Shown here: positions 2,843 through 9,512 of the stretch, piece after piece | How positions within the stretch are numbered: position 1 is the stretch's first letter | Layout: every line of letters begins with the position of its first letter | Origin: Nitrososphaerota archaeon | GTDB lineage: Archaea > Thermoproteota > Nitrososphaeria > Nitrososphaerales > UBA183 | Length of the DNA stretch: 10,782 nt | Assembly: GCA_027886925.1 (NCBI GenBank) | Contig: JAPCJN010000025.1 | Coordinates: 11,500-22,281 of the forward strand | Direction of reading: 5' to 3' | Program-made: the position numbers and the translations under genes | The notes under the pieces: generated by a model | Database searches by the model: none | Told to the model about the DNA's origin: nothing | The model's input: the letters and a program-made list of their open reading frames with translations, nothing else

Positions 2843-4993
2843 CTACGCCAGGCCTCGAACAGCTTCGTCCACTTTAAAGGTAAGCTCAGTGGCGGAGAGC
2901 ACCTCTTCGGTGGTTATCAGGGAGTTCGGGAGCCCGTGGATGGACTTTGCTAGCTCCGCGAATTCCTCTTTGTGGCCCTTCTCGGCCTTCTTCAGGCGGC
3001 GCCGCTCTGAAGCAGCACCGTAGATGACCAGCTCCTTGAAATCGTCCAGGACCATCGAGGACCCCTGCGCGAACACCTCTATCCTCTCCCTGTCCATCGC
3101 CTTGCTCCCCATCGAGACATAGACGAGCGTGGCAAGGGAGCCGCTCGGATATTTTAGCGATACGCTGATGTTGTCCCGCGCCACGGAGCTCGAACCGTTT
3201 ATCCCCGCCGTCTGGACCGTTATCTCCGGGTTCGACTCTTCCAGGAGGAAGTTGAAAAGGTCGAAGAAGTGGCAGCACTCGTGGACGATCCTTCCTCCCC
3301 CCACTTCCGCGTCCTGGGACCATCTCGTCCCCGCGACGAAGCCGGCGTTGACCCGGTAGTCGATGAGGAACGGCCCGTCCATGCCCTTCATCCTCGCCTT
3401 CATCTTCGTCACCAAGGGTGCATACCTTCGGTTGAAGCCCACCAGCACGGGCGCCCCCGACTCGAGGTGCAGAGCCTTCGCTTTCTCGAGTTCCGCCCGC
3501 GAGATGCAGAGGGGCTTCTCTACCAACGCGATCTTGCCGGCCGCCACGGCCTCCGCCATCATCGGAAAGTGCATCTTGTTGGGAGCGGTGATGACGACGG
3601 CGTGCAGGTCTGCGTCCGCGAGCGCCTCGGCGAGACTGCAGGTGCTCTTCTCGGCCCCGTACCTCCTGGCGACCTGTGTCGCGTGGAGCGGGTTGGAAGA
3701 CACGACCCATCGCAGATGGTAGTCAGGGCTCGACCGGAGAAGCGGGAGGATGGTCTCCTTGGCGAAGTTTCCGGGGCCGACGACAGCGACATTAACGGCG
3801 CCGTTGACGGGGGCGCGAGGACCTGCGGTCGCCCTGGCCGGCGAGGGCGCTTCTTTGGCCGCCGAGTCTTTCCGTGGATAAGTTAGAAGCACCGCGACCT
3901 TGCCTTGCTTTCCCAGCTCGTCATACGCGCGGGTAGCGTTGTCAAGGGGGAACTCCGCCCCCACCAGCTTCTCCACGTCGACCTTTCCAGATTGGAGCAG
4001 GTCGAGGAACGCTTCCATGTTCCTGTTGAGCGTCCACCTGACGTACTCGAGGGGATAGTCGACACCTTTCTCCTCGTACACGGGGTCGTACCTCCCGGGG
4101 CCCAGAGACCGGGACATCAGCAGCCTCAGCTCCTTTTGGAAGAAGTCCTTCCTGTCGATGTCCATCCCGACCCTACCGACGACCGTGACCGTCCCCCTGT
4201 TCCTCGATATACGGGCCGCGAGGTTGAGCGGGTCGCTGCTGGACGCCGCGGCGCAGACGAGGACGTGGTCGAGCCCCCTTCCGCGCGTGTAGTGAAGGAC
4301 GTGGTCCGTGAGCGCAGGCTCGTCCGCCTTCAGCGTAAGGTCGGCCCCGACCTTGCGGGCGAGCTCCAGCCTCTCTTCTTTCAGGTCGATGCAGACGACC
4401 CTGCAACCCGCGGCCTTGGCCACCTGGGTGACGATGTTGCCCACAAGGCCCGCGCCGATGACCCCTACGGTCTCGCCCAGCGCGGCGCCGCTGGTGCGGA
4501 CTGCGTGGACGGCGATGGCCCCTATGGTCGAGAAGGCAGCCGAGCTCATCGGCACGCCGCCATCGATTTTGGTCAGGAGGTTCCTCGGGACAGCGACGAG
4601 TTCAGCGTGGCAGGCCTTCCCCTCGCCGGCGCACACCACCTCATCGCCCACCACGATGTCCACGACCCCCCTGCCGACCTCGATGACGGTCCCGGCGGAG
4701 CTGTAGCCGAGAGGCACCTCGGGGTTACGTACCGCCTTCGCATAGTCGAGGAGGCCGCTGGCCCCCTCTTTGGCGAGCACGTCGCGCGAGAGGCGCGTCG
4801 CCTTCTCTAGCATCGAGGAGCTCTTAGCGATGTCTGACGCTGAGAGGGGGGTCGTCGAATCGATCGCCCAGGTCTCGGTCCCCGTGCTGATGACCGAAAA
4901 AGCCGTCCTTACGAGCACTTCCTTGTCCCCGCAGACGGGTTCCGGGACGTCGACCACGGTGACCTGGCCCCCTCGGGCGATTACCTGCTTCAA
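2843..4993 (-). CDS. Two-domain oxidoreductase: MDR (Zn-alcohol dehydrogenase-like) fused to GFO/IDH/MocA
   Basis: Numbered from TTG at 4993, the 716-residue product has two domains. Residues 1-375 form a medium-chain dehydrogenase with nucleotide-binding GAGLVG at 180-185. The second half, from about 400, is a GFO/IDH/MocA sugar dehydrogenase with GPGNFA at 406-411 and the family EKP motif at 492-494. A Pro/Ala-rich linker joins them. The positions that bind catalytic zinc in alcohol dehydrogenases are not cysteine/histidine here (STGTE and PLGYSS), as in other proteins of this fused family, so the MDR half is probably zinc-independent. Such fusions are common in polysaccharide loci, where they are thought to oxidise or reduce nucleotide-sugar intermediates; the substrate is unknown. 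TTG is preferred because it gives the family-typical MKQV beginning, has GGAGGT 9 nt upstream, and overlaps the epimerase stop as TTGA. A longer frame opens at 5038 but its 15 extra residues look non-native. Confidence 0.92.
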   Translation of the reverse strand: MKQVIARGGQVTVVDVPEPVCGDKEVLVRTAFSVISTGTETWAIDSTTPLSASDIAKSSSMLEKATRLSRDVLAKEGASGLLDYAKAVRNPEVPLGYSSAGTVIEVGRGVVDIVVGDEVVCAGEGKACHAELVAVPRNLLTKIDGGVPMSSAAFSTIGAIAVHAVRTSGAALGETVGVIGAGLVGNIVTQVAKAAGCRVVCIDLKEERLELARKVGADLTLKADEPALTDHVLHYTRGRGLDHVLVCAAASSSDPLNLAARISRNRGTVTVVGRVGMDIDRKDFFQKELRLLMSRSLGPGRYDPVYEEKGVDYPLEYVRWTLNRNMEAFLDLLQSGKVDVEKLVGAEFPLDNATRAYDELGKQGKVAVLLTYPRKDSAAKEAPSPARATAGPRAPVNGAVNVAVVGPGNFAKETILPLLRSSPDYHLRWVVSSNPLHATQVARRYGAEKSTCSLAEALADADLHAVVITAPNKMHFPMMAEAVAAGKIALVEKPLCISRAELEKAKALHLESGAPVLVGFNRRYAPLVTKMKARMKGMDGPFLIDYRVNAGFVAGTRWSQDAEVGGGRIVHECCHFFDLFNFLLEESNPEITVQTAGINGSSSVARDNISVSLKYPSGSLATLVYVSMGSKAMDRERIEVFAQGSSMVLDDFKELVIYGAASERRRLKKAEKGHKEEFAELAKSIHGLPNSLITTEEVLSATELTFKVDEAVRGLA

Positions 4994-5967
4994 TTGACTG
5001 CAACCTCCTGCTTCTCGTCGTGTCGCTCCTTGAACCATTCGAGGAAGTGACCGAGGCCCTCGTCAAAGTCCACCGCAGGCCTCCACCTGAGGACGCGCCT
5101 CGCCTTCTCGTTCCCGGCGAGCGTCCTTGGGAAGTCGCCCGCGTAGGTAGGAAGGAACTTGGGCTCCATCTCCCCGCCAAGGCGGGCGATGACCTTGCTC
5201 ACGACGTCCAATATCGTGATCTCGCGTCCGTACCCGATGTTGAAGACCTCCCCGTCAGCCTCCTCCGTCTCGGCGGCGAATATCGCCGCGGAGACTATGT
5301 CTGTGACGTAGGTGAAGTCCCTCGATTGGGAGCCGTTGCCATAGATTATCGGCTGCTCTCCCGCCAGAACCTTCTCGGCGAAAGCGTGCGTCACCTGGTC
5401 AGGCCGCCCGCGAGGCCCGTACACGGAGAAGTACCTCAGCGAGGTGACGGCTAGCCCTTCCGTCTGGGCCATGGCATGGCAGTACTTCTCGGCCGCGAGC
5501 TTCGTCGCGCCGTAAATCGAGGTGGGGTTGGTCGGGTGGCTCTCAGCGATCGGGACCTTCTGCGGGATGCCGAAGATCGACGACGAGGAGGCATAGACGA
5601 TCTTCTTGACCTTGTTCTGCTTCGCGGCGAGGAGGACGTTCATGGTCCCTGTCACGTTGACCTCGTGCGCCTTCATCGGCTCGCCGATGCAGTACCTCAG
5701 CCCCGCCTGCGCCCCCTGGTGGAATATGATGTCGGTCTTCTTCATCGTGTCAGATAGCTTCTGCTGGTCTCGTATGTCGCCTTCGACGAACCTGAACGAC
5801 CGATTCTTCAAGTTGTGGCCGTAGTTGCGGGACTTTTCGCCGTAGAACGGGTCGAGGTTGTCGTACGAGGTCACCTGGCACCCGAGACCGAGGAGCTGGT
5901 CCACTAGGTGCGAACCTATGAAGCCTGCCCCGCCTGTCACCATGACTCTCTTGTGCGCTAATTCCAC
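4990..5967 (-). CDS. NAD-dependent nucleotide-sugar epimerase/dehydratase (extended SDR, UDP-glucose/UDP-glucuronate 4-epimerase-like)
   Basis: The 325-residue product has the full extended-SDR signature: NAD-binding GGAGFIG at residues 12-18, an acidic D-N-L turn after the second strand, the serine-rich stretch SSSS at 127-130 and the catalytic Y152-x-x-x-K156 pair in YGATK. SVYGPRGRPD (181-190) is typical of UDP-sugar 4-epimerases that act on UDP-glucose, UDP-GlcNAc or their uronic acids. Length is normal for the family. It would act in the cytosol to supply an activated sugar to the glycosyltransferases. The start is GTG at 5967, supported by GAGGTGA at 5981-5975, 7 nt upstream, which overlaps the stop codon of the preceding GT4 gene. 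An ATG at codon 9 would leave almost nothing before the NAD motif. The exact substrate cannot be told from sequence. Confidence 0.93.
   Translation of the reverse strand: MELAHKRVMVTGGAGFIGSHLVDQLLGLGCQVTSYDNLDPFYGEKSRNYGHNLKNRSFRFVEGDIRDQQKLSDTMKKTDIIFHQGAQAGLRYCIGEPMKAHEVNVTGTMNVLLAAKQNKVKKIVYASSSSIFGIPQKVPIAESHPTNPTSIYGATKLAAEKYCHAMAQTEGLAVTSLRYFSVYGPRGRPDQVTHAFAEKVLAGEQPIIYGNGSQSRDFTYVTDIVSAAIFAAETEEADGEVFNIGYGREITILDVVSKVIARLGGEMEPKFLPTYAGDFPRTLAGNEKARRVLRWRPAVDFDEGLGHFLEWFKERHDEKQEVAVN
5003..5008 (-). promoter_or_regulatory. Shine-Dalgarno GGAGGT selecting the TTG start of the two-domain oxidoreductase
   Basis: GGAGGT on the minus strand ends 9 nt before TTG at 4993-4991. It lies within the last codons of the epimerase gene, whose TGA (4992-4990) overlaps the TTG. 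This arrangement suggests translational coupling and decides between the TTG and the upstream in-frame start at 5038. Confidence 0.75.
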
Positions 5968-5974
5968 CTGTGTC

Positions 5975-7135
5975 TCACCTCAACCTGATCTGGGAATAAA
6001 TCTCTTCAAGCTCTGCCGCGAGCACCGAATATCGGTAATGGGAGGCCTTGTTCCGGGCGTTCGCGCCCATCTGTGCCATTAGTGGTCGATCCCGGAGGAG
6101 CGTTAGAAGGGCGACGGAGAGGGCGGAGATGTCGCCCCAACCTACCAGCAACCCTTCGACTCCCTGCGTTATCTGCGAAGGTATCCCCCCGACCCTGTTC
6201 GACACGACGGGCTTCGCTTGGGACATGGCCTCGAAGATCGCCTGGCTCGTCCCCTCGTAAGAGGTCGGCAGCACGAACAAGTCGCAGGCCGCATAAGCCT
6301 GCATCTTCTCCTTCAGGTCGTATATCGGGCCCACGATGTGGACGTTCGCGGATATCCCGAGGACCCTCGCCTTCTCGATCAGCTTCGCCTTGTATCCGAC
6401 CTGGTCGGGCCCGACGAGGACGATGGCGGCCTCGGGAAACTCGGCTATTATCGGGACCGCCGCCTCCAACAGGTGCTGGGGGCCTTTGAGCGGGTTCAGC
6501 CTGCCCAGGAAGAGCAACAACGGCGACCCGTCTATCGAATACTTCTCCCTGAACGCCCGCCCGTCATAAGAGTTCATCGACTCGTCCCTGATCCCGGATG
6601 GCGTCACCCTGACCCTAGAGTTGTCGGCCCCCATCTCAAGGAGGGGAGGGATCAGGTCGGGCGCCCTCACCAGGATGGAGTCGCTCGCGGGGAGCGTCCT
6701 TCCGGCGAAGTACGTCTCTATCGGTTTCATCGGCCATTTCTTGTAGAAGTTGCGGGGGATCATCCTGTGCACGTCGAAGACGGTGAGGGCGGACCTCACC
6801 CGCTCTTTCTCAGCGACCCGGAGCGCGACCAAACTGTGCGTCGCTGCATAGTCGTAGGTGTGGATGACGTCGTATCCGCCCTCCTTCACGGTCTCGGCCA
6901 GGCCGTCCCAGAGCTTGAGCCTGTAGGACCAGTCGAGGCTCAGCTTTACCCTCTTGACCGTGATCCCATCGAACTCCTCGTGAGGCTGCGCCGACTTGCC
7001 ATCGTAGTTAAGCGCCGTCACCACCTCGACCTCATGCCCCCTCTTGACTAGCTCTCGGGAGATATTGTGCACGTACCACTCCACACCTCCCACCGTAAAG
7101 GGGTGGAAGTAGAGGCTGACCTGCGCTATCTTCAG
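5975..7135 (-). CDS. GT4-family (GT-B fold) glycosyltransferase, likely CTG start
   Basis: This is a retaining glycosyltransferase of the GT4 type. It begins with the GT-B first strand and glycine loop (KIAQVSLYF followed by TVGGVEWYVHN), has FLGRLNPLKG at the start of the C-terminal domain, and the donor-binding E-x7-E pair at about E294 and E302 (numbered from CTG) followed by EAMSQAKPVV. It would transfer a sugar from a nucleotide donor to a growing lipid-linked glycan at the inner membrane face. The first conventional start, GTG at 7093, would delete the first beta strand. The frame upstream holds no ATG, GTG or TTG before a stop at 7144-7142, but a CTG at 7135-7133 restores the strand, overlaps the deacetylase stop as CTGA and has GGTGA 6 nt upstream. 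Product is 386 aa from CTG or 372 aa from GTG. Confidence 0.93.
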   Translation of the reverse strand: MKIAQVSLYFHPFTVGGVEWYVHNISRELVKRGHEVEVVTALNYDGKSAQPHEEFDGITVKRVKLSLDWSYRLKLWDGLAETVKEGGYDVIHTYDYAATHSLVALRVAEKERVRSALTVFDVHRMIPRNFYKKWPMKPIETYFAGRTLPASDSILVRAPDLIPPLLEMGADNSRVRVTPSGIRDESMNSYDGRAFREKYSIDGSPLLLFLGRLNPLKGPQHLLEAAVPIIAEFPEAAIVLVGPDQVGYKAKLIEKARVLGISANVHIVGPIYDLKEKMQAYAACDLFVLPTSYEGTSQAIFEAMSQAKPVVSNRVGGIPSQITQGVEGLLVGWGDISALSVALLTLLRDRPLMAQMGANARNKASHYRYSVLAAELEEIYSQIRLR

Positions 7136-7995
7136 GCGCCGTCACCAGGGGTAGCTTCGAGCCACTCCGCGAGGCCCCGCATGGTCAGGACGGAGAGCTT
7201 GCCCTCGCTCCTCTTCTTGTCCATGTAGGCGAACGTCGGTTCGAGGACCCGCTTCGCGTAGGCCTCTGGGCTCGGATCCACGACGCTCCAGGGGTGGAAC
7301 CACAGATGAAAGACGGAGCCAGAGTCGATGCTAAAGTCCATCGTCCTCTGTATCAGGCGGGAGGCGCCCAGCGCGTTCTGGTCGAGGTAGAAGACCGGGG
7401 CTATGTTCCAGAGTCCGTTCATCCTTCGGGGATAGCCGATGGTCCTCTCCTTCGCCCGGTAGGAGATGAACCCCGACCTCTTGACCGCGTCGAAGTGCCC
7501 CGTCCTGTTCCAAGGGAAGATGAACGTCTTGGGGGGCGCGCTCAAAGCGAGCACCTCGATGCACTTCTCTATCTCTTGCTCCAGCTCCGCTTCCGAGCAC
7601 TTTGAGACGTCGATGTGCGAGTAGGTGTGAACCCCGATGTCGTGCTTGACCGGTGCCGAGGCGACCAAGTCATACGCCCGCCGGTCGTTCTCCGCGGTGC
7701 GGCCGCAAATCGCCCACGTCATGGGGATGTTGTACTTCTCCCCCAACGCGACCACGGACTCCGTGCCGACCCTGTTGGGCGCCTCCCTCTGGGGGATAGT
7801 CGCGTCGAAGTCTATAGAGATGCAGCAAGCGGAGGGGGCGCCTCCGGGATAGGTCACCGGCCGCGCAGGAGGGTCGTATCCCACCTTCGCCACTCTCAAG
7901 ACGCGCCTGGTGAGGGATGGAGAGACGCCAGAGTGCGTCGCGAGCGCCAGTCTCAGGGCCGTCGACTTTGCGAATCTCTTGGTTCGTAGTGACAT
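7132..7995 (-). CDS. Polysaccharide deacetylase-like protein (NodB/CE4 fold)
   Basis: The 287-residue product carries the NodB-type motifs in order: SIDFDA at residues 60-65 (D62 and D64 in a D-x-D pair rather than the classic T-F-D-D), the metal-binding H123-T-Y-S-H127, FPWN at 160-163 at the position of the R/F-x-P motif, and a late HLWFHPW at 230-236 that supplies the last catalytic histidine. It is therefore likely a metal-dependent hydrolase removing an N-acetyl or related acyl group from a sugar. No signal peptide or membrane helix is visible, so it probably acts in the cytosol on a nucleotide-linked or lipid-linked sugar. It is the first gene after the 7996-8168 promoter region. The ATG at 7995 has no clear Shine-Dalgarno, unlike its followers, which fits a first gene in an archaeal transcript. 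Substrate is unknown. Confidence 0.9.
   Translation of the reverse strand: MSLRTKRFAKSTALRLALATHSGVSPSLTRRVLRVAKVGYDPPARPVTYPGGAPSACCISIDFDATIPQREAPNRVGTESVVALGEKYNIPMTWAICGRTAENDRRAYDLVASAPVKHDIGVHTYSHIDVSKCSEAELEQEIEKCIEVLALSAPPKTFIFPWNRTGHFDAVKRSGFISYRAKERTIGYPRRMNGLWNIAPVFYLDQNALGASRLIQRTMDFSIDSGSVFHLWFHPWSVVDPSPEAYAKRVLEPTFAYMDKKRSEGKLSVLTMRGLAEWLEATPGDGA
7142..7146 (-). promoter_or_regulatory. Shine-Dalgarno-like GGTGA ahead of the CTG start of the GT4 gene
   Basis: GGTGA on the minus strand is followed by six bases and then CTG at 7135-7133. It lies in the last codons of the deacetylase-like gene. The position is ideal for initiation at CTG and too far from the GTG at 7093 to serve it. 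Confidence 0.5.
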
Positions 7996-8052
7996 TTAGA
8001 TAGACAACACACATGAATTCAGGATGAACGTTGATGAATTAGTGACTCAGAA

Positions 8053-8066
8053 GTCTTAAATTCGGA
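8053..8066 (-). promoter_or_regulatory. BRE/TATA-like archaeal promoter, possibly bidirectional
   Basis: Read on the minus strand, TCCGAA (8066-8061) followed directly by TTTAAGAC (8060-8053) matches the archaeal BRE plus TATA pattern. Initiation would be expected near 8031, giving a leader of about 35 nt before the deacetylase ATG. The core TCTTAAAT is nearly symmetric: read on the plus strand its centre is about 27 nt before the 5' end of the candidate structured RNA at 8084, the normal TATA-to-start distance. The 7996-8080 stretch is clearly A+T-richer than the flanking genes. Confidence 0.5.
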
Positions 8067-8083
8067 CTTTCGGTTGTTATCAT

Positions 8084-8157
8084 GGGTGTGCAGCCAAGGG
8101 GAGCAACCTTGTGGATATGAAGGAGGGTTCGCCTGCCATTCTGAGTATCCCACACCC
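8084..8157 (+). ncRNA. Candidate structured RNA, three-way junction, 74 nt
   Basis: The segment starts with GGGTGTG and ends with the exact complement CACACCC (7-bp closing stem). Inside are a 5-bp hairpin, CAAGG/CCTTG with loop GGAGCAA (8095-8111), and a long hairpin from 8113 to 8150. The long hairpin has a base stem of GGATAT with GTATCC (five pairs plus one G-U), further pairs GAAGG with CC-A-TTC, and a GGG-UUCG-CC tip. The last helix stacks directly on the closing stem. G-U pairs slightly favour the plus strand, and a TATA-like box lies about 27 nt upstream on that strand. On the minus strand it would be the 3' untranslated region of the DUF354-like gene, starting 11 nt after its stop. 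I do not recognise an RNA family. Strand and expression are unproven. Confidence 0.4.
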
Positions 8158-8168
8158 TTCACCTCTTT

Positions 8169-9512
8169 CTAAGCCTCGAAGAGTCGAGTTTTGAAGCCTC
8201 GGTACTCCTCTAGCATCCGCAGTCCGTCTTCTGTAGACTGATAGAACTTCCCGTCGAACGTGTTTTGGGAGGTGATCAGGGATTTGCGCTCCAGCGTGTC
8301 GATTATCCTCTTCAGCTCATTGTAAGAGACGTTTGCGACCTTCATGATGTGGGTCAGGCGGAGGGGGCGCACAGCGACCGCGCTTATGATGTCCAGGTAG
8401 ATCTCAAGGTGAGACCTACGTTTGGAGGAGACGTTGGGATCCTCAGAGGCGGTGTCCAACCTTCTTATCTCCTCCATCATTAGCTGGACCGGGTCGTCCA
8501 TTGACCTCACGATGAGGGCGGCCCTTTCCTTGAACGCCCGTTTCTCTTCGTCGTCCTCGACGTAGTCCATGACGTATTCCGCGACCGTCTTAGGGTCCGT
8601 CGAGTGTTTTATGTAACGGTGCAGCTCGATCACGGGCTTGGAGAGCTCCCAGTATATCGAGCTCACCGTGGGCTTGCCAAGCACTAGAGACTCCATCAAC
8701 ATGGTCTCGGCGGCGCCCAGAGTGACGTCTGCGTGCGCGACAGGGCTGTCGCTCGCGGAGGCGTCCATTATCGTCGCGCCCATGTGCGAGTAGCTCCGAC
8801 GCTGCTCCTCCGTCCTCGGCAGGACGACGACGTTCGCCTTGCCGCTTCTCACGATCGAGCTGACGGCGTTCTCAAGGATTGGCTGGTTATGTAGGAAGAA
8901 GGAGGCGAGCTCAGGCTCGGGCCTGACGAAGACCACCGGAGGTCCCAAGCTCATCTTGGTGTATGGATTGGCCATTTCCTGCTTTTCGCTCTTCAGGTAG
9001 CAGGTGTGGAACCCGTTGAACCAGACCACCTTCTCGGGGTCCATCACCCCGTGGTGATACAGCTCCTGGAACGAGTAGAACCGGGGGGAGAAGACCTTGC
9101 TCACCAGGGGGAAGACCATCTGGTTCACGTGCTTCTCTCTCTCGTCGTAGAAGATCCCCCACGAAGGGATGTTCAGCCCGAAAGCGACCCTCACGGCCTC
9201 CGGCCATCTCTCCGTGAGGAGCAGGTCGGGCTTCTCCTTCTCGACCACGGGGAGGAGCTCCTGGATGTTCTTCGCGTAGACCTCCAGCTTGTTGGAGAGC
9301 GACCTTCCGCCGTGCTTCCCGACCGTAAGGTAGTCGATCTTCTTTGCGTCCAAAATGGACGTTATTCGGTCATGATCCCTTGCGGTGACGACGAATTCGT
9401 ATTCCTTCCCCAGCTCCCTGATCAGCGGGGCGAAGAAGTTGGCCTGGAACGGCGTCCCCATCGCGACCCATATCTTCTTGATCTTCCGCTCTTTCCCTTT
9501 CCGGAGTGGCAT
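8169..9512 (-). CDS. DUF354-like (GT-B / UDP-GlcNAc 2-epimerase-like) protein fused to a C-terminal HTH_45-type winged helix
   Basis: Residues about 12-345 match the DUF354 pattern: KIWVAMGTPFQANFFAPLI at the first strand, a TARD turn at 43-46, KHGGRSLSNK near 66-75, and in the second half ADVTLGAAETMLMESLVLGKP (261-281), where the family keeps the glycine-rich and acidic sugar-nucleotide site. DUF354 proteins resemble UDP-GlcNAc 2-epimerases and GT-B glycosyltransferases and occur in archaeal surface-glycan loci. Residues about 366-437 form a separate winged helix (RSHLEIYLDIISAV, then ANVSYNELKRIIDTLERKSLI, then a basic hairpin and an STEDG helix), closely resembling the archaeal HTH_45 type. 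The fusion is in one uninterrupted frame. The gene starts 16 bp after the GPT-like enzyme stop with a weak GGAGA upstream. It may be a glycosyltransferase whose C-terminal domain binds DNA or RNA or serves as a protein-interaction module. Confidence 0.88.
   Translation of the reverse strand: MPLRKGKERKIKKIWVAMGTPFQANFFAPLIRELGKEYEFVVTARDHDRITSILDAKKIDYLTVGKHGGRSLSNKLEVYAKNIQELLPVVEKEKPDLLLTERWPEAVRVAFGLNIPSWGIFYDEREKHVNQMVFPLVSKVFSPRFYSFQELYHHGVMDPEKVVWFNGFHTCYLKSEKQEMANPYTKMSLGPPVVFVRPEPELASFFLHNQPILENAVSSIVRSGKANVVVLPRTEEQRRSYSHMGATIMDASASDSPVAHADVTLGAAETMLMESLVLGKPTVSSIYWELSKPVIELHRYIKHSTDPKTVAEYVMDYVEDDEEKRAFKERAALIVRSMDDPVQLMMEEIRRLDTASEDPNVSSKRRSHLEIYLDIISAVAVRPLRLTHIMKVANVSYNELKRIIDTLERKSLITSQNTFDGKFYQSTEDGLRMLEEYRGFKTRLFEA

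What the first reader, a model, noticed from the sequence alone, without database searches (positions are those of the whole stretch)
8084..8157. Candidate novel structured RNA with a three-way junction in the intergenic region
A 74-nt segment is bounded by a perfect 7-bp inverted pair and holds two more helices, one of 5 bp with a 7-nt loop and one long hairpin with a UUCG tip. About 21 or more pairs form in 74 nt, in a region that codes for nothing. The long hairpin also has GA and UGA on opposite strands (8119-8120 and 8142-8144), so an alternative kink-turn with tandem G-A pairs, a site for archaeal L7Ae, is conceivable. Observed: the complementarity. Inferred: that it is transcribed and functional.
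Basis: partly seen in the sequence, partly recalled or inferred. Interest (0 to 1): 0.7.

Follow-up and report, generated by a model that had tools for sequence, protein, structure and literature searches.

The report
New conserved archaeal small RNA gene
A short stretch between two sugar-polymer genes of a soil archaeon looks like a gene for a small folded RNA, kept in relatives at the same place with its own start signal; what it does is unknown and nobody has yet shown that it is made.

Summary
Window 8084-8157 (+) folds as a three-way junction, alone only modestly better than shuffles (z -2.25; -2.1). Homologues decide it: the gap between the DUF354-HTH_45 and polysaccharide-deacetylase genes holds a related element in 10 further loci of 7 relatives of a named thaumarchaeon. 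On 10 sequences (one near copy dropped; hand-made alignment) 98.0% of 196 pair cells are standard pairs, and all 10 counted pairs of the long hairpin change on both sides. The plus-strand fold is better in 10 of 10; G-U pairs are 41 of 248 in plus folds, 6 of 210 in minus folds. A TATA-like box starts 29-32 nt before the first RNA base in 10 of 10, so transcription probably runs against the genes. No Rfam family matches. The kink-turn/L7Ae idea is not supported: a GA/GA loop in 1 of 10. Best reading: an independent, regulated small RNA gene tied to a surface-glycan locus, probably gained once. Expression, function, partner and target are unproven; one simple target test was negative.

The parts
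8034..8050 (.). Imperfect palindrome ATGAA-N7-CTCA(G), candidate regulator-binding site beside the TATA-like box
   Evidence: In 10 of 10 homologues TG lies exactly 20 nt upstream of the box, and [CT][CT]CA begins 11 nt after that T (read). That it binds a protein is inferred.
8055..8060 (+). TATA-like box CTTAAA, starting 29 nt before the first RNA base
   Evidence: a box starts at -32..-29 in 10 of 10 loci. YTTWWW shared by 9 of 10 loci in a 4-nt band, at most 4 in 2000 mononucleotide shuffles (hexamer chosen after seeing the sequences).
8084..8157 (+). Small structured RNA, whole fold (5' end inferred from box spacing, 3' end unknown)
8084..8090 (+). P1 closing helix, 5' strand GGGUGUG
   Evidence: 6 of 10 P1 pairs never vary in 10 sequences.
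8095..8111 (+). P2 small hairpin CAAGG-GGAGCAA-CCUUG with a purine-rich loop
   Evidence: pair probabilities 0.92-0.95. Not predicted in 3 of 10 homologues.
8113..8150 (+). P3 long hairpin with a 2x2 GA/GA internal loop
   Evidence: 10 of 10 counted P3 pairs change on both sides.
8151..8157 (+). P1 closing helix, 3' strand CACACCC
8169..9512 (-). DUF354 protein with C-terminal HTH_45; its 3' end faces the RNA, 11 nt away
   Evidence: Pfam; beside the RNA in all 11 loci.
7132..7995 (-). Polysaccharide deacetylase gene on the other side of the RNA
   Evidence: Pfam PF01522; synteny.

Best explanation
8084-8157 is the body of an independent small RNA gene, transcribed rightward from its own TATA-like promoter at 8055-8060 and so against the neighbouring polysaccharide genes. 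The RNA folds into a sequence-conserved closing helix (P1), a G-rich linker or small hairpin (P2) and a long hairpin whose sequence is free but whose pairing is kept (P3). Supported by comparison: the structure, the strand and the promoter geometry. Inferred: it is a regulatory RNA of the surface-glycan locus, switched by a protein that binds the palindrome upstream of the box; P1 and P3 serve as scaffold, and the exposed G-rich segment (GGGGwGC(C)A) pairs with, or recruits a protein to, a target. My estimates: real RNA gene on the + strand about 0.9; regulatory rather than housekeeping about 0.6; G-rich segment as the contact site about 0.25.
For: Place: the element lies between duf354 and dea in all 11 loci known, the window and 10 others (duf354 is cut by a contig end in L006). 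Covariation: 98.0% of 196 cells paired, 40 cells with both sides changed against a shuffled mean of 11.7 (0 of 500 shuffles as high), score 0.654 against 0.223, at most 0.280 when slid. Alignment-free: L009 and L015 align without gaps, and A29-U54 became G29-C54. Strand: + MFE lower in 10 of 10, mean z -4.02 against -2.18; G-U 41 of 248 pairs on +, 6 of 210 on -. Promoter: box at nearly fixed distance in 10 of 10; exact copies of the promoter motif elsewhere, in the same direction, start 52, 60, 62, 66 and 106 nt before start codons in L047, L056, L060, L058 and L048. Origin: the 10 RNA-bearing DUF354 rows lie on one side of a 96/96 branch. Copies: G031 has three copies of the locus, an RNA in each.
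Against: No transcript data. The window is the least convincing fold of the 10. A3 is a hand-made structural alignment and leans towards its structure. Covariance searches of 250 and 400 relatives found no member beyond those found by synteny, and those were used to build the models; R1 missed G019, and its five weak hits (E 0.27-0.51) were not followed. The L009/L015 pair also holds a broken pair. P2 is not predicted in 3 of 10. No pairing of the linker to the approximate starts of dea (mean z +0.36, 10 loci) or gt1 (+0.09, 9 loci). A run of five T lies within 25 nt downstream in only 3 of 10, not in the window. With one mismatch the promoter motif gives 45 hits against 33 for the reversed control in 10 genomes.
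Confidence: 0.6

Rival explanations
1. The element works on the minus strand as a 3'-end or intercistronic hairpin of the duf354 mRNA: termination, stability, or separate expression of the deacetylase gene.
For: It begins 11 nt after the duf354 gene end in the window, and the minus strand also folds better than shuffles on average (mean z -2.18).
Against: G-U pairs 41 of 248 on plus and 6 of 210 on minus; the + fold is better in 10 of 10; a positioned + strand TATA-like box is conserved.
Confidence: 0.1
2. Antisense interference: transcription from the + promoter runs into the convergent 3' end of duf354 and lowers it, the hairpin being only a stabiliser of the antisense transcript.
For: Convergent layout with 11 nt spacing; no T run that could end transcription in 7 of 10.
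Against: Does not explain why six P1 pairs never vary or the kept G-rich segment.
Confidence: 0.15
3. A modification guide (box H/ACA or C/D) or another housekeeping RNA bound by L7Ae.
For: Small size, hairpins, GA opposite GA in the window.
Against: No ANA in the first six bases after P1 in 10 of 10, no C box in 10 of 10, CUGA in 3 of 10; GA/GA loop in 1 of 10; among 400 relatives found only at this locus, in 7.
Confidence: 0.05
4. A small protein gene starting at the GUG in P1.
For: That frame is open for 25 or more codons in 6 of 10 loci, the window included (28).
Against: It stops after 4-7 codons in L008, L010, L013 and L014; element lengths from 62 to 76 nt differ by numbers not divisible by three; P3 covaries.
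Confidence: 0.02

Closest known systems
Archaeal intergenic (trans-encoded) small RNAs, as reported for Haloferax, Methanosarcina and Sulfolobus (review PMC3432209, passages seen)
   Same: Short and intergenic; here also a structured RNA with its own promoter-like box.
   Different: Here the evidence is comparative only, and the RNA is tied to one glycan locus; no match to a known family.
Archaeal cis-antisense RNAs (same review)
   Same: Would be transcribed against the neighbouring genes.
   Different: The RNA body lies in the gap and overlaps no gene unless the transcript is longer than the fold.
Box H/ACA and C/D guide RNAs, L7Ae kink-turns (features recalled)
   Same: Small folded archaeal RNAs.
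   Different: Their boxes and a kink-turn are not conserved here.

Membership tests
Independent archaeal small RNA gene | Conserved structure with compensatory changes | tested here: met
   on a hand-made alignment; alignment-free support.
Independent archaeal small RNA gene | Own promoter at the right distance | tested here: met
   (sequence only; spacing rule recalled).
Independent archaeal small RNA gene | Transcript detected | not testable with these tools
   No RNA-seq at hand.
Box H/ACA guide RNA | ANA box just 3' of the basal helix | tested here: not met
   0 of 10 in the first six bases after P1.
Box C/D guide RNA | Conserved C (RUGAUGA) and D (CUGA) boxes | tested here: not met
   RUGAUGA in 0 of 10; CUGA in 3 of 10 (window, L008, L014) (exact letters only).
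L7Ae kink-turn RNA | 3-nt bulge beside tandem G-A pairs, conserved | tested here: not met
   Symmetric GA/GA loop in 1 of 10 MFE folds.
Rfam families (release 15) | Match at the gathering score | tested here: not met
   Window: none; 8000-8200: none at E up to 10. Seven homologous loci (E up to 5): two hits far below gathering; one of them (CRISPR-DR57, 19.6 of 39 bits, E 4.7) overlaps the RNA of L031 on its own strand.
tRNA or tmRNA | ARAGORN match | tested here: not met
   None in the window.

The most novel reading that the evidence does not exclude
A lineage-specific small RNA, born once in a family of acid-soil thaumarchaea, is made from a promoter type that also serves secreted proteins, and it resets expression of the surface-glycan module to which it is physically tied, with the fused DUF354-HTH_45 protein as a possible regulator of that promoter.
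Probability: 0.2. Interest if true: 0.7.

Novelty: new member of a known kind. Interest (0 to 1): 0.5.

Why it matters
The listings showed no paper, by title or abstract, on structured regulatory RNAs of soil thaumarchaea such as these (listings only, capped at 15 and 10). A family with covariation, a defined strand, a promoter-like box and probably one origin gives a concrete RNA to look for in soil metatranscriptomes, and a first lead to how these cells may regulate their surface polymers.

Tried and rejected
Kink-turn/L7Ae, H/ACA, C/D, tRNA, any Rfam family, minus-strand leader or terminator, and a small protein were considered and rejected as above. Pairing of the linker with approximate starts of dea and gt1: no signal. 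Pairing with the 16S anti-Shine-Dalgarno end: -6.4 to -14.2 kcal/mol, weakest in the window, no control made, so not used. A wider regulon by a one-mismatch motif search: 45 hits against 33 in the reversed control over 10 genomes; in the seven RNA-bearing genomes 23 against 12, of which 8 are RNA promoters: uninformative. Paper searches: (listings only, apart from passages of PMC3432209 and of PMC10640624). No listed title or abstract start describes this RNA; the lists were capped and the library lacks most subscription papers.

Full report
Observation. The 74-nt segment 8084-8157 folds as described: P1 of 7 bp, P2 of 5 bp with a 7-nt loop, and P3, a long interrupted hairpin; MFE -30.1 kcal/mol, identical to the centroid. 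Alone it is only modestly better than dinucleotide shuffles (6 of 200 as good; 19 of 500), and with a few flanking bases z is -1.10. The reverse strand is not special (z -0.64).

Context. The listed genes of the window lie on the minus strand; six of the eight proteins scanned match Pfam families, most of them glycosyltransferase, epimerase, deacetylase or oxidoreductase families. The segment lies between the 3' end of a DUF354-HTH_45 gene (8169-9512) and the start of a polysaccharide deacetylase gene (7132-7995). No whole genome is held for the window. The named relative L001 is JAPCJH010000001.1, SubAcS15-15, which PMC10640624 lists under Ca. Subgagatemarchaeum, from acid subsoil (passages).

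Homologues. The deacetylase query matched 9 of 101 genomes (relatives of G001) at E 1e-20; two of these (L011, L012) are weak and without duf354 beside them. Ten distinct loci in 7 genomes (G001, G015, G016, G017, G019, G023, G031) have the order duf354 - gap - dea, and each gap holds a stem-closed element in the same orientation. P1 is nearly constant, the inside varies. Nine are of type A, with GGGGG after P1; the window and L004 are of type B, with the linker enlarged to a stable P2 hairpin. G031 has three copies of the locus, each with its RNA. Of 250 relatives, 10 genomes have the DUF354 protein at E 1e-60; 7 of them carry the RNA and 3 do not. In G113 duf354 and dea are at most about 23 nt apart; in G109 another gene follows duf354; in G002 the two genes are convergent. 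A search of these three genomes with model R2 found nothing at E up to 5. The DUF354 tree puts the 10 RNA-bearing rows on one side of a 96/96 branch and the other 3 on the other side (midpoint root, G002 on a long branch), which fits one origin but does not prove it.

RNA evidence. Against 500 shuffles, plus strand: mean z -4.02, all 10 negative, and in 5 of 10 no shuffle as good; minus strand: mean z -2.18. The structure counted on a hand-made, N-padded alignment of 10 sequences gives 98.0% paired cells, 11 of 20 pairs with changes on both sides (10 of 10 in P3, 1 of 10 in P1) and a covariation score of 0.654 (shuffled 0.223; slid at most 0.280). Hand alignment favours the structure, so two alignment-free facts matter: the z-scores of single sequences, and the ungapped pair L009/L015, where one pair is exchanged A-U to G-C while another is broken (U35-A48 to C-A). 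Strand: in each strand's own MFE folds, G-U pairs are 41 of 248 on plus and 6 of 210 on minus.

Promoter. In the 110 nt upstream, YTTWWW on the plus strand occurs only at -32 to -29, in 9 of 10 loci, against at most 4 of 10 in 2000 mononucleotide shuffles (the hexamer was chosen after seeing the sequences); L004 has GTTAAT at the same place. That archaeal TATA boxes are centred about 26-27 nt before the start is recalled knowledge; it puts the 5' end at or close to the first G of P1. At fixed spacing upstream lies a palindrome-like aTG...[CT][CT]CA in 10 of 10 (read). A motif written from these promoters gave 14 exact hits in 10 genomes and none for the reversed pattern. Seven are the RNA promoters, by construction. 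Of the other 7, five start 52-106 nt before start codons in the same direction (L047 52, L056 60, L060 62, L058 66, L048 106); L047, L048 and L056 have signal-peptide-like N-termini and L060 looks PxpA/LamB-like, both judged by eye. With one mismatch the signal is lost among control hits (45 against 33).

What it is not. See the membership table: Rfam, ARAGORN, guide-RNA boxes, kink-turn and small-protein readings fail.

Limits. The covariance models found no member beyond those found by synteny, so the family is small: 11 loci including the window. R1 gave 9 strong hits in 6 of 250 genomes and 5 weak ones in 5 others; R2 gave 9 hits in 7 of 400. P2 is predicted in 7 of 10 and not in L005, L008 and L013 (G017, G023, G015), which form one clade in the tree (98/95); P2 was not tested by covariation. 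Expression, ends, partner and target are unknown; the one target test was negative. A protein search lists many more DUF354 relatives (254 at E 1e-100, 120 shown) whose flanks I could not read.

Correction.

Noticed in passing
L047, L048, L056, L058, L060: Exact copies of the RNA's promoter motif (palindrome plus TATA-like box) start 52-106 nt before start codons in relatives; three of the frames look secreted by eye. A possible surface regulon.
   Followed up: partly
L043 2589-2615 (minus strand), G002: A one-mismatch copy of the motif stands upstream of, and directed toward, the deacetylase gene in a genome without the RNA; one-mismatch hits are no commoner there than in the control beyond 10 against 6.
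   Followed up: partly
8169-9512 (-): DUF354 protein fused to a winged-helix HTH_45 domain; the 120 relatives listed all show both domains.
   Followed up: no
2843-5038 (-): A 731-aa fusion of a zinc-type dehydrogenase with a GFO/IDH/MocA oxidoreductase.
   Followed up: no
L001, L009, L015 from the GUG in P1: One frame is open and looks alike (VCGG..RP..RG..CTP), but it stops after 4-7 codons in four other homologues.
   Followed up: yes
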